Below are positions 57,571 to 61,715 of a stretch of DNA of 64,000 nt, in pieces. The notes under the pieces are model-generated. The model made no database searches and was not told where the DNA came from. It saw nothing but the letters and a program-made list of their open reading frames with translations. Positions within the stretch are counted from its first letter, which is position 1, and each line of letters begins with the position of its first letter. Where the stretch lies: assembly GCF_003952425.1 (NCBI RefSeq), contig NZ_CP034449.1, positions 4,216,001 to 4,280,000 of the forward strand, written 5' to 3'. The position numbers and the translations under genes were made by a program. The stretch comes from Mesorhizobium sp. M2A.F.Ca.ET.046.03.2.1 (GTDB taxonomy: Bacteria; Pseudomonadota; Alphaproteobacteria; Rhizobiales; Rhizobiaceae).

Positions 57571-58185
57571 TCAGCGCCTGAGCAGAAACACCGCTTGCTG
57601 GCCGAAGAAGTTCCAGAACCACCACGGCATCGACAGGCCGATCTTCTGGCCGTTGGCGTCGAGCGCGGTCGCCTTCTCGACGGTCGCGCCAAGCTCTTCG
57701 CACAGGTTGACGAAGTCGCGTATGGTGCAGAAGTGGATATTGGGCGTGTCATACCAGGAATAGGGCAGGTCCTTGGTGACCGGCATCCTGCCTTTGGTCA
57801 GCAGCGAAAAGCGCACGCGCCAGTGACCGAAATTGGGAAAGGAGACGATGGCGCGGTTACCGATCCGAAGCAGCTCATCGAGCACCACCTTCGGGTTGCG
57901 CGTCGCCTGCAGCGTCTGCGACAGCACGACGAAATCGAAGCCCTTGTCGGCATAGAATTTCAGATCCGTGTCGGCGTCGCCCTGGATCACGGAGAGGCCG
58001 CGCGCCACGCATTCGTTGACGCCACGCTGCGACAGTTCCAGCCCGCGGCCATCGACCTGCTTGGTCTCCTGCAGCAGTTCCAGGAGGACGCCGTCGCCCG
58101 AGCCGACGTCGAGCACGCGCGACTTGGCCGGAATGAGATCGGTGACGACTTCGAGGTCGACACGCTGGGCGCGGTTGACGCTCAT
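57571..58185 (-). CDS. metW: methionine biosynthesis protein MetW
   Basis: A 204-residue class I methyltransferase-fold protein. Motif I is [18 protein letters not shown], then [41 protein letters not shown], and [20 protein letters not shown], typical of MetW. MetW is required with MetX for homoserine O-acetylation in many proteobacteria, probably by activating MetX. It starts inside the metX stop (4-nt overlap), so the pair is coupled. SAM control from the upstream riboswitch would cover both. Confidence 0.96.
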
Positions 58186-59351
58186 AGGCTGAGCCCCCTT
58201 GCGCGTGCTGCCGAACCGATGAAGCCGTTGATGGCCGCGAACAGCTCCGGCTCGTCGAGCAGGAAAGCGTCGTGGCCGCGATCCGTCTCGATCTCGACGA
58301 AGGAGACGGAAGCGCCCGCCGCGTTCAAGGCATGCACGATCGAGCGGCTCTCCTCGGTCGGGAACAGCCAGTCGCTGGTGAAGGAAATCAGGCAGAAGCG
58401 CGTCCTGGTCCCGGCGAAGGCATCGGCGAGGCGCCCGCCGTGATCGGCGGCAAGATCGAAATAGTCCATCGCGCGGGTCAGATAGAGATAGGAATTGGCA
58501 TCGAAGCGGTCGACGAAGGTCATGCCCTGGTGGCGCAGATAGCTCTCGATCTGGAAATCGGCGTCGAAGCCGAAGGTGAGCGCCTCGCGGTCCTGCAGGT
58601 TGCGGCCGAACTTGCGGTGGAGCGCCGCTTCCGAAAGATAGGTGATGTGGGCGGCCATGCGCGCGACGGCGAGCCCCTTTTCCGGGCGCTTGCCGAACTC
58701 GAGATATTTGCCGCCATGCCAGTCCGGATCGGCCATGACCGCCTGCCGGCCGACCTCGTGGAAGGCGATGTTCTGCGAGGAATGGCGGGCGCCGGTGGCG
58801 ATCGGCAGCGCCGAGAAGACCCGCTCCGGATAGCTCGCCGCCCATTCCAGCACCTGCATGCCGCCCATCGAGCCGCCGAGCACGCAAAATAGCTTTTCGA
58901 TGCCGAAATGATCGACCAGCATCGCCTGCGCGCGCACCATGTCGCGTATGGTGATGATCGGCAGGTCCAGGCCGTAAGGCTTGCCGGTCGCTGGATTGGT
59001 CGAGGCCGGGCCGGTCGAGCCGAGGCAGCCGCCGATGACGTTTGCGCAGATGACGAAGAAGCGGTTGGTGTCGATGATCCTGCCGGGACCGATCAGCACT
59101 TCCCACCAGCCCGGCTTGCCGGTCACCGGATTGGTGTTGGCGACGTGCTGGTCGCCAGTCAGGGCATGGCAGACGAGAATGGCGTTGGAGCGCGCGTCGT
59201 TCAAGCTGCCGTAGGTCTGGTAGGCGATCTGGAAAGGCGAGAGCAGCGTGCCGGCGTCGAGCTTCAGCGGCTTGTCGGGGCCGAACTGCAGCACCGGGCT
59301 CGACGGATGGTCGGCCTCGTCGTTGGTTCTTGCAGCGCGCTGAGCGGCCAT
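58182..59351 (-). CDS. metX: homoserine O-acetyltransferase
   Basis: A 389-residue alpha/beta hydrolase-fold acyltransferase making O-acetylhomoserine for methionine synthesis. Start ATG at 59351 ([17 protein letters not shown]); upstream frames are noise. Motifs are [40 protein letters not shown], nucleophile [15 protein letters not shown], and the Asp/His of the triad in the C-terminal third ([19 protein letters not shown]). Members of this family may instead use succinyl-CoA; the sequence alone does not decide here. A SAM-II riboswitch and a terminator precede it. Confidence 0.95.
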
Positions 59352-59412
59352 GTCCGTCCTCGATCCTGTCCCGCATCGGTCTCGACACGACGCAGTGTCC
59401 GGCCGGCGGCGG

Positions 59413-59448
59413 ACAACAAAAAACCGGCTTGCCGTCGCAAAGCCGGTT
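59413..59448 (-). terminator. intrinsic terminator in the metX leader
   Basis: Minus-strand stem AACCGGCTT (59448-59440) and AAGCCGGTT (59430-59422), 9-nt loop, followed by T-run TTTTGTTG. It lies 14 nt after the riboswitch aptamer and 60 nt before the metX ATG, so it can end transcription before metX. Its 5' arm contains ACCGGC, which can pair with GCCGGT in the aptamer. Confidence 0.75.
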
Positions 59449-59461
59449 ACAGGTTGCAAAC

Positions 59462-59518
59462 GGCCCTTTAGCGAGTTGTTTAACGTGGCTGCAAGCCGAC
59501 CGGCCAAATCACCACGGA
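59462..59518 (-). promoter_or_regulatory. SAM-II riboswitch before metX
   Basis: Minus-strand CGTGGTGATTTGG (from 59516) continues to TTGCAGCCACGTT and GCTAAAGGG. These are the SAM-II (metA motif) elements: the stem CGTGG/CCACG, the TGATTT loop that forms the pseudoknot, TTGCAGCC, and the 3' GCTAAA. SAM-II aptamers control metX/metA genes in Alphaproteobacteria. The match was made by eye; a covariance search would confirm it. Confidence 0.9.
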
Positions 59519-59670
59519 AGTCTGGCTGACCTTCTAGGACCGGAGCCGCTGTTCGTCAACGGGGGTAGCCTCTATGCCGACAGGGGCTGCCGCAGCGCCA
59601 GCACTCGACATTGCAGCCCGTGGCCTGTATTTCCGCTGCGGCCTTGAGGCCTTCTCGACGGATTTGTGAC

Positions 59671-60774
59671 ATGAAGCAGGATCAGCCCCGTCCGACGCCC
59701 CGCGTGGGCATCATGGACATCGAGGCCTATGTGCCGGGAAAAAGCAGCGCGCCGGCCGGCGTGACGAAAGTCTACAAGCTGTCGTCGAACGAAAATCCCC
59801 TGGGGCCTTCGCCGAAGGCGATCGAGGCCGCGCGCGAGGTGGCGGCGAAGCTCGACGTCTATCCCGACGGCACCGCGCGGCGGCTGCGCGAGGCGATCGG
59901 CGAGGTGCATGGGCTGAACCCTGCGAACATCATCTGCTCCAACGGCTCGGACGAGATCCTGGGGCTTCTGGCGCAGACCTATCTCGCGCCGGGCGACGAG
60001 GCCGTGTTCACCGAACACGCCTTCATGGTCTACAAGATCTACATCCAGGCGACGGGCGCCAAGCCGGTGGCGGTGAAGGAAACCGACGAGCGCGCCGATG
60101 TCGACGCGATCCTCGCCGCGGTTACGCCCAAGACGCGTATCGTGTTCCTTGCCAATCCGAACAATCCGACCGGCACCTACCTGCCGTTCAGCGAGGTGCG
60201 GCGGCTGCATGCCGGCCTGCCGAAGAACGTGCTTCTGGTGCTTGATGCGGCTTACGCCGAATATGTGCGGCGCAACGACTATGAAGCCGGCATCGAGCTT
60301 GCCGGCAGCGCCGAGAACGTGGTGATGACACGCACCTTCTCCAAGCTCGGCCTCGGCGGGGCGCGCGTGGGCTGGATGTACGGGCCGGCGCATATCGTCG
60401 ATGCCATCAACCGTATTCGCGGCCCCTTCAACGTCAACGCCACCGCGATCGAGGCTGGCATCGCCTCCATCCGCGACCGCGCCCATATTGAGCGCAGCGT
60501 GACGCATAACGAGAAATGGCTGACATGGCTCAGCGCGGAGCTGACCGGGCTCGGCCTGCGCGTCACGCCCAGCGTCGGCAATTTCGTGCTGATCCATTTT
60601 CCCGACGACAAGGAACATTCGGCGGCGGCCGCGGACGATTACCTGAGCGCGCGCGGCTATATCCTGCGCCGCGTCACCGGCTACGGCTTTCCCAACGCGC
60701 TGCGCATGAGCGTCGGCACCGAGGAAGCCAACCGCGGCGTCATTGACGCGCTGAAGACCTTCCTGAAAAGCTAG
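59671..60774 (+). CDS. hisC: histidinol-phosphate aminotransferase
   Basis: A 367-residue PLP enzyme, start ATG at 59671 ([20 protein letters not shown]). Motifs of class II aminotransferases: [55 protein letters not shown], and the PLP lysine in [15 protein letters not shown]. HisC acts in histidine synthesis. Next to tyrC, it may also transaminate aromatic precursors, as some rhizobial HisC/AroAT enzymes do. It is divergent from metX, sharing the 319-nt gap with the riboswitch. tyrC starts 5 nt later. Confidence 0.94.
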
Positions 60775-60779
60775 ACACC

Positions 60780-61715
60780 ATGGCATCACCGATGTTCGAG
60801 AAAATAGCGCTGGTCGGCATCGGCCTGATCGGCTCGTCGCTCGCCCGCGTCATCCGCCGTGAAGGCCTGGCGCGTCATATCGCCATCGCGACGCGCAGCG
60901 CATCGACGCTGAAGCGCGCCGAGGAGTTGGGCCTTGGCGATTCCTACACGACGGAGGCAAAAGAAGCGGTGGGCGATGCCGATCTCATCATCGTCTCGGT
61001 CCCGGTCGGCTCGTCCGGCGAGGTCGCGGCCGAGATCGCGCCGGCGCTGAAGAAGGGCGCCATCCTCACCGATGTCGGCTCGACCAAGGCTTCCGTCATC
61101 GCGCAGATCGAGCCGCACGTGCCGGAAGGCGTGCACTTCATTCCCGGTCATCCGCTGGCCGGCACCGAAAAGTCCGGACCCGATGCGGGCTTTGCCGATC
61201 TCTTCGAGAACCGCTGGTGCATCTTCACGCCGCTGCCGGGCACCGATCCCGCCGCGCTCGAGACGCTCTCGGAATTCTGGCGGCGCTGCGGCTCCAACAT
61301 CGATACGATGGACCCGCAGCATCACGACATGACCTTGGCGATCGTGTCGCACCTGCCGCATATCATCGCCTACAACATCGTCGGCACGGCGGACGATCTG
61401 GAAGCGGTGACCAAGAGCGAGGTCATCAAATATTCCGCCTCCGGTTTCCGCGATTTCACCCGCCTTGCTGCCTCCGATCCGACGATGTGGCGGGACGTGT
61501 GCCTGCACAACAAGGACGCGATCCTGGAGATGCTGGCGCGGTTCTCGGAAGATCTGGCCTCGCTGCAGCGGGCGATCCGCTGGGGCGACGGCGAGAAGCT
61601 GTTCGATCTCTTCACCCGCACGCGCGCCATCCGCCGCTCGATCATCGAGGCCGGCCAGGATATCGATGTGCCGGATTTTGGCCGGCAGGCGGTCGAGCAT
61701 CCCAAAGGGAACTGA
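60780..61715 (+). CDS. tyrC: prephenate/arogenate dehydrogenase
   Basis: A 311-residue NAD(P)-dependent TyrA-family enzyme in tyrosine synthesis (cyclohexadienyl dehydrogenase type). Rossmann motif ALVGIGLIGSSLARVI is at residues 9-24. ATRSASTLKRAEELGL suggests R/S contacts for NAD(P). The substrate domain has GVHFIPGHPLAGTEKSGPDAG, with the catalytic His, and SHLPHIIAYNIVGT. The protein ends in KGN, with its TGA inside the large dyad at 61706. Its nearness to hisC supports aromatic amino acid synthesis; prephenate versus arogenate preference is not resolvable. Confidence 0.92.
   Translation: MASPMFEKIALVGIGLIGSSLARVIRREGLARHIAIATRSASTLKRAEELGLGDSYTTEAKEAVGDADLIIVSVPVGSSGEVAAEIAPALKKGAILTDVGSTKASVIAQIEPHVPEGVHFIPGHPLAGTEKSGPDAGFADLFENRWCIFTPLPGTDPAALETLSEFWRRCGSNIDTMDPQHHDMTLAIVSHLPHIIAYNIVGTADDLEAVTKSEVIKYSASGFRDFTRLAASDPTMWRDVCLHNKDAILEMLARFSEDLASLQRAIRWGDGEKLFDLFTRTRAIRRSIIEAGQDIDVPDFGRQAVEHPKGN

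What the first reader, a model, noticed from the sequence alone, without database searches (positions are those of the whole stretch)
59413..59518. SAM-II riboswitch with a terminator and a possible antiterminator
The aptamer is followed after 14 nt by a strong intrinsic terminator. GCCGGT in the aptamer (plus strand 59499-59504) is complementary to ACCGGC in the terminator's 5' arm (59442-59447). Without SAM the two could pair and allow read-through into metX-metW. SAM-II is mostly described as acting on translation.
Basis: partly seen in the sequence, partly recalled or inferred. Interest (0 to 1): 0.75.

Follow-up and report, generated by a model that had tools for sequence, protein, structure and literature searches.

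The report
SAM-II riboswitch controlling transcription of metX-metW
In this Mesorhizobium-like genome an RNA sensor for S-adenosylmethionine sits before methionine-synthesis genes and most likely stops their transcription when the metabolite is plentiful, using a switch hairpin that relatives preserve by matched mutations; this is a known kind of switch, but the switching strand probably differs from the one first proposed.

Summary
In detail: a full SAM-II aptamer (RF00521, 78.9 bits, window 59525-59448, minus strand) is followed by a strong terminator (59448-59422) and metX-metW; GCCGGT and ACCGGC are complementary as stated.

The novelty claim fails: SAM-II with terminators was reported in 2005 and 2007, and 238 of 272 related loci examined have such a hairpin.

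The proposed antiterminator is right in logic but probably wrong in partner. The L1:terminator match follows from the near-palindromic GGCC/CCGG of P2 and shows no compensatory change. Better supported is a local 12-pair hairpin (59467-59439, -12.3 kcal/mol) in which the P2 3' strand, held in the pseudoknot when SAM binds, pairs with the terminator's 5' arm. Its key pair moves between G-C, G-U and A-U: 33 of 33 scored GACCG loci carry U, and tree simulations matched this in 0 of 5000 runs. One further pair covaries within the genus. Folding of 88-92 and 100 nt transcripts switches as expected, though the finished terminator wins either way, so control would be kinetic.

Nothing was tested experimentally. 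A weaker candidate antiterminator also appears before metA, where a published study could not predict one.

The parts
59531..59559 (-). Putative promoter: -35 TTGACG (59559-59554), 17-nt spacer, -10 TAGAAG (59536-59531); start site near 59524 (assumed)
   Evidence: Sequence; in the 20 metX rows of the window's genus that I picked to display, TTGACG in 20 and TAGAAG in 19. The generic scan found none, so this rests on conservation.
59448..59525 (-). SAM-II aptamer (RF00521)
   Evidence: cmscan 78.9 bits, E 4.2e-16, complete model
59484..59517 (-). P1 hairpin (CCGTGG 59517-59512 with CCACG 59488-59484) enclosing L1
   Evidence: Rfam alignment, coordinates
59498..59502 (-).
   Evidence: The two variable P2 positions form standard pairs in 221 of 221 loci
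59461..59466 (-). P2 3' strand GGGCCG: proposed switching strand shared by the P2 pseudoknot and the antiterminator
59439..59467 (-). Proposed antiterminator hairpin: AGGGCCGTTTGCA (59467-59455), loop ACC, TGTAACCGGCTTT (59451-59439); 12 pairs and one mismatch, -12.3 kcal/mol
   Evidence: (all cells paired in 26 distinct genus sequences; A-U 16 / G-C 10 at the top pair)
59422..59448 (-). Intrinsic terminator hairpin, -16.5 kcal/mol
59414..59423 (-). U-run TTTTTTGTTG
58182..59351 (-). metX, homoserine O-acyltransferase (389 aa), start ATG 59351
   Evidence: NCBIfam NF001209 552.9 bits, cut-off 331
57571..58185 (-). metW, overlaps the end of metX
   Evidence: NCBIfam TIGR02081 295.3 bits, cut-off 189.5

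Best explanation
A SAM-II riboswitch that works as a transcriptional OFF switch for metX-metW. Transcription starts just before P1. When SAM is scarce, the P2 3' strand (GGGCCG) is free and, as soon as the terminator's 5' arm is made, pairs with it in a local hairpin (the antiterminator); RNA polymerase then reads through. When SAM is bound, that strand is held in the P2 pseudoknot with L1, the 5' arm stays free, the terminator forms, and transcription stops roughly 105-110 nt after the start. Shown here: aptamer, terminator, the alternative hairpin, and its conservation and covariation. Inferred: start site, SAM binding at this locus, direction and size of the effect, and kinetic control.
For: Aptamer; terminator. 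Pair between the P2 3' base and the base after CCGG in the terminator arm: GACCG with U 33, C 0; GGCCG with U 52, C 117 (Fisher 5e-15). With the terminator's 3' partner fixed to G: 16/0 against 30/113. With L1 fixed to GCCGGTCGG: 32/0 against 14/76, so neither terminator pairing nor L1 explains it. On a metZ protein tree (127 tips): 10 parsimony changes at the P2 base; 11 maximal GACCG clades, all U; the non-GACCG sister tips printed carry G with C or the wobble G with U. 0 of 5000 simulations of the arm base reach the observed correlation 0.558 (maximum 0.471). Register test over 221 loci: P2 3' core pairs with the arm 96% (weighted) in this register, 59% in the next best. Own arm beats swapped arms (-11.33 against -10.63, better in 145 of 228, p 1e-5). 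In predicted folds the P2 3' core pairs with the arm in 225 of 232 loci, 145 expected from shuffles, 6 loci skipped. Within the genus all 12 pairs hold in 26 distinct sequences, with A-U/G-C exchange at the top pair. Growing transcripts: antiterminator probability 0.92 at 88-92 nt when free, 0.01-0.19 when the P2 strands are blocked; at 100 nt terminator 0.01 free, 0.85 blocked.
Against: From 103 nt on the terminator wins in both states (0.84-0.86), and at 98 nt the antiterminator falls to 0.16 even when free, so read-through needs kinetic trapping, which was not modelled. RNAalifold on the genus alignment returns the terminator, not the antiterminator. Within the genus 11 of 12 antiterminator pairs never vary; the count of pairs with changes on both sides (1) is reached in 485 of 500 shuffles, though the cell count and covariation score are not (0 of 500). 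In the mutual-information list of 221 loci the P2 3':arm pair ranks only 11th among pairs between segments; several higher couplings are not pairings and look lineage-driven. Several tree nodes have low support. As a bare duplex L1:T5' is predicted stronger than P2 3':T5' (-13.0 against -11.3 on average). No expression or binding data for this locus.
Confidence: 0.75

Rival explanations
1. One reading: L1 GCCGGT pairs with the terminator arm ACCGGC when SAM is absent (a second pseudoknot), and P2 frees the arm when SAM binds.
For: Exact complementarity at the stated places; predicted duplex -12.8 kcal/mol here, -13.0 on average over 228 loci. Same OFF logic.
Against: No compensatory change; the sixth pair forms in 37% of weighted sequences; L1 C is met by A or C, rarely G. 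Swapped arms fit equally well. Six loci with L1 GCCGAC break a pair. The match follows from the palindromic GGCC/CCGG core.
Confidence: 0.12
2. Unregulated attenuation: the terminator forms regardless of SAM and makes a short RNA; SAM acts on RNA stability or not at all.
For: Equilibrium folding favours the terminator in both states at full length. In S. meliloti the metA terminator strongly limits expression in both media tested (Scheuer 2022).
Against: Does not explain the covariation between the P2 3' strand and the terminator arm.
Confidence: 0.1
3. Translational control by hiding the ribosome site in P2, as in the Sargasso Sea metX SAM-II.
For: The SAM-II mechanism described in the review passages that I saw.
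Against: Here the last P2 base is 110 positions before the A of the metX ATG, and a terminator lies between.
Confidence: 0.03

Closest known systems
SAM-II riboswitches followed by putative intrinsic terminators (Corbino et al. 2005, PMC1273637; Barrick and Breaker 2007, PMC2258182)
   Same: Aptamer, terminator between P2 and the ORF, promoter just before P1, OFF logic; [quoted passage not shown])
   Different: What I read of them names no antiterminator partner for SAM-II and no covariation for one
S. meliloti metZ SAM-II riboswitch (Scheuer et al. 2022, PMC9373788)
   Same: Predicted SAM-induced termination giving sRNA RZ; the window genome has a SAM-II with a terminator before metZ (L002)
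   Different: The alternative structure is in Fig. S1, which I could not see; it may already show the same hairpin
S. meliloti metA SAM-II riboswitch (same paper)
   Same: SAM-II aptamer and a validated terminator downstream
   Different: The authors could not predict a SAM-II-driven antiterminator; metA-like leaders fetched here show a candidate
SAM_alpha before metXW in Bradyrhizobiaceae (Leyn et al. 2014, PMC4239095)
   Same: Same class before metXW, reported in five genomes (passages read)
   Different: Mechanism not analysed in the passages read; here the host is Mesorhizobium-like

Membership tests
SAM-II riboswitch (RF00521) | Conserved aptamer sequence and P1 | tested here: met
   78.9 bits, gathering 36, full model
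SAM-II riboswitch (RF00521) | P2 pseudoknot between L1 and the 3' tail | tested here: met
   CGGTC with GGCCG, one G-U; the two variable positions form standard pairs (G-C, G-U, A-U types) in 221 of 221 loci
SAM-II riboswitch (RF00521) | Lies before a methionine or SAM biosynthesis gene | tested here: met
   metX-metW
SAM-II riboswitch (RF00521) | Binds SAM | not testable with these tools
   No binding assay
Transcription-terminating riboswitch | Intrinsic terminator between aptamer and ORF | tested here: met
   -16.5 kcal/mol plus U-run
Transcription-terminating riboswitch | Antiterminator mutually exclusive with both ligand-bound aptamer and terminator | tested here: met
   By prediction and comparison only: shares GGGCCG with P2 and the 5' arm with the terminator; covariation
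Transcription-terminating riboswitch | Ligand changes termination | not testable with these tools
   Needs in vitro transcription
Translational SAM-II (Sargasso metX type) | Ribosome site within or next to P2 | tested here: not met
   metX ATG is 110 positions beyond P2

The most novel reading that the evidence does not exclude
Across the order the SAM-II P2 3' strand is a shared switch strand: it pairs with L1 when SAM is bound and with the terminator's 5' arm when not, before metZ, metX and many metA genes alike. In metA leaders of the type I take to be Sinorhizobium that strand also holds GAGG, the Shine-Dalgarno sequence named for S. meliloti metA, so one strand would set both transcription and translation, which would answer the point left open in that study.
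Probability: 0.5. Interest if true: 0.5.

Novelty: new member of a known kind. Interest (0 to 1): 0.4.

Why it matters
SAM-II is best known from a translational example, yet most copies sampled here (238 of 272) look transcriptional. Comparative evidence for the antiterminator turns an expression mechanism that the 2007 survey called not experimentally established into a specific mutation test. It also offers one possible reason why a SAM-pocket mutation raised the level of a metA reporter mRNA in S. meliloti.

Tried and rejected
Generic terminator and promoter scan: found neither. L1:T5' as antiterminator: tested by pair tables, register test and swap test, not favoured. Unbiased mutual information: dominated by terminator pairs and lineage effects; the P2 3':arm pair ranks 11th, so I rely on the direct test of that pair instead. 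RNAalifold on the genus alignment returned the terminator only. Terminator covariation within the genus: no pair with changes on both sides. My terminator finder takes the lowest-energy hairpin and misplaces some arms (for example L005, L015, L092). The single GACCG locus scored as G rather than U (L120) is such a misplacement; its printed sequence reads ACCGGTC, that is U. Rows dropped before the Fisher test: of 238 loci with a terminator, 5 had no CCGG in the arm, 15 were of the GGTCG type and 16 had A or G at the position (L120 among them), leaving 202. The 272 loci are not a random sample: they are mostly the best-scoring matches, partly picked by me from capped lists. The metA-type alignment (A2) was hand-picked: 13 of 58 loci with such a start within 200 nt, and one of the 13 (L026) has no terminator by my finder. 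Its signal is weaker: 84.8% of cells paired (shuffles 81.9, reached by 5 of 500), two pairs with changes on both sides (reached by 55 of 500). Searches for a published SAM-II antiterminator; only open-licence PMC papers are held and supplements could not be opened.

Full report
Observation. On the minus strand the window holds a complete SAM-II aptamer at 59525-59448 (RF00521, 78.9 bits, E 4.2e-16). After it comes AACCGGCTTTGCGACGGCAAGCCGGTT (59448-59422, -16.5 kcal/mol) with a U-run, then metX from ATG 59351 and metW (NCBIfam). A putative promoter, TTGACG-17-TAGAAG, ends at 59531; in the 20 genus metX rows that I picked to display, TTGACG is in 20 and TAGAAG in 19. An exact-match pattern of this expression platform hits 94 stretches in named genomes; of the 80 listed, 76 are labelled Mesorhizobium and 4 bear only higher names, so the window is Mesorhizobium or very close. 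The same genome has a second SAM-II before metZ.

Prior knowledge. Corbino et al. [quoted passage not shown] Scheuer et al. 2022 (abstract, passages and the first of two parts of the discussion) predict SAM-induced termination for S. meliloti metZ, validate a terminator after the metA aptamer, and say they could not predict a SAM-II-driven antiterminator there. The terminator as such is therefore not new.

Relatives. Searching genomes for RF00521, 227 of 297 in the order sample, 234 of 247 in the family sample and 99 of 99 in the genus sample have it. I used 272 loci (aptamer core found in each), mostly best-scoring matches rather than a random draw. By tblastn 166 precede metZ and 57 metX; of the other 49 most begin MPIKIP or MPIRIP, which I take from memory as MetA. 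A terminator-like hairpin is found in 238 of 272, against 23 of 120 shuffled stretches. Of the 34 without, 18 are among the 49 others, 9 metZ and 7 metX.

Which strand pairs with the terminator's 5' arm? Both L1 and the P2 3' strand can, because P2 is nearly palindromic (GGCC/CCGG). The informative position is the base after CCGG in the arm. Its possible partners are the second base of the P2 3' pentamer (GGCCG or GACCG), the first G of L1 GCCGG (invariant), and the terminator's 3' arm. GACCG goes with U in 33 and C in 0; GGCCG with U in 52 and C in 117 (Fisher 5e-15; 202 of 238 loci after the exclusions listed elsewhere). The association stays when the terminator's 3' base is fixed to G (16/0 against 30/113) or L1 is fixed (32/0 against 14/76). 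One further GACCG locus scored as G was a misplaced arm and reads U. On a tree of metZ proteins (127 tips) the P2 base changes 10 times by parsimony; all 11 maximal GACCG clades carry U, and the non-GACCG sister tips printed are G with C or the wobble G with U; several nodes have low support. Simulating the arm base along the tree never reaches the observed correlation of 0.558 in 5000 runs (maximum 0.471). In the unbiased mutual-information list the pair ranks 11th among pairs between segments, below terminator pairs and couplings that are not pairings. For L1 the position that varies (U or C) is not followed by A or G in the arm: L1 U meets A 116, C 8, G 3; L1 C meets A 34, C 55, G 4, T 4; six loci with L1 AC meet A 3, G 3. 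Own arms fit the P2 3' strand better than swapped arms (145 of 228, p 1e-5), but fit L1 no better (99 of 228, p 0.86). Against this, bare L1:T5' duplexes are predicted stronger on average (-13.0 against -11.3), so the L1 pairing is not excluded.

The hairpin here. AGGGCCGTTTGCA-ACC-TGTAACCGGCTTT (59467-59439) gives 12 pairs around one mismatch, -12.3 kcal/mol. In 26 distinct sequences (44 loci) all cells pair, 100.0% against 98.0% in shuffles and at most 55.7% in slid registers; the top pair is A-U in 16 and G-C in 10. Eleven pairs never vary, so this is one covarying pair, probably few events, and the count of covarying pairs is reached in 485 of 500 shuffles. The terminator stem has no pair with changes on both sides in this set, and RNAalifold returns the terminator, as expected for the final state.

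Folding of growing transcripts. With the start assumed at 59524, the antiterminator has probability 0.92 at 88-92 nt, and 0.01-0.19 when P2 and L1 bases are blocked to mimic SAM. At 94 and 96 nt it is 0.73 and 0.66 (blocked 0.03, 0.04), at 98 nt only 0.16, at 100 nt 0.50. At 80 nt, when only part of the hairpin is made, the measure is 0.14 free and 0.58 blocked. The terminator has 0.01 (free) against 0.85 (blocked) at 100 nt, and from 103 nt on it wins in both (0.84-0.86). The switch would therefore have to be kinetic, which these calculations cannot show.

metA leaders. In leaders that I take to be of Sinorhizobium and Rhizobium type, the P2 3' strand GGGCCG pairs with an arm holding GGACC (GGGCC in L026) across a stem that varies. 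In a hand-picked set of 13 (12 distinct), 84.8% of cells pair (shuffles 81.9; slid registers at most 47.7), and two pairs change on both sides (reached by 55 of 500 shuffles). This is weaker than the metZ evidence, but it is a candidate antiterminator where the published study found none. My fetched loci do not demonstrably include S. meliloti 2011 itself.

Verdict. A real SAM-II riboswitch with a terminator, of a known kind. I did not find this antiterminator in print in the searches and in the passages read, but the library holds only open-licence papers and I could not open supplements, in particular Fig. S1 of Scheuer 2022.

Noticed in passing
L065, L066, L069, L082 (window's genus): The same leader type (GGGCCGTTTGCG...CGTAAACCGGC plus terminator) stands before a MetA-like ORF (MPIKIP or VPIKIP) instead of metX: the gene behind a conserved riboswitch was apparently exchanged.
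   Followed up: partly
window 59396-59415 (-): A second short hairpin TGTCCG...CGGACA between terminator and metX, without a U-run. Of the 20 genus metX rows displayed, 15 have GTCCG and CGGAC exactly, two (L068, L200) with one change, L070 and L090 lack it, and L092's stretch is not shown there. Role unknown.
   Followed up: no
L146 (G299 contig 15): A copy with promoter-like sequence, SAM-II aptamer, antiterminator-like hairpin and terminator but no metX or metZ match and no MPIKIP start seen in the roughly 850 nt downstream: perhaps a stand-alone SAM-controlled small RNA or a relic.
   Followed up: partly
L130 (G365 contig 1): A third SAM-II copy in its genome with neither terminator nor recognised met ORF behind it.
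   Followed up: partly
window 59662-61715 (+): hisC and a prephenate/arogenate dehydrogenase gene run divergently from the riboswitch promoter.
   Followed up: no
34 of 272 SAM-II loci: No terminator by my finder; 18 of these are among the 49 loci without a metX or metZ match, mostly MetA-like (for example L055, L060, L207, L223), and may work on translation.
   Followed up: partly
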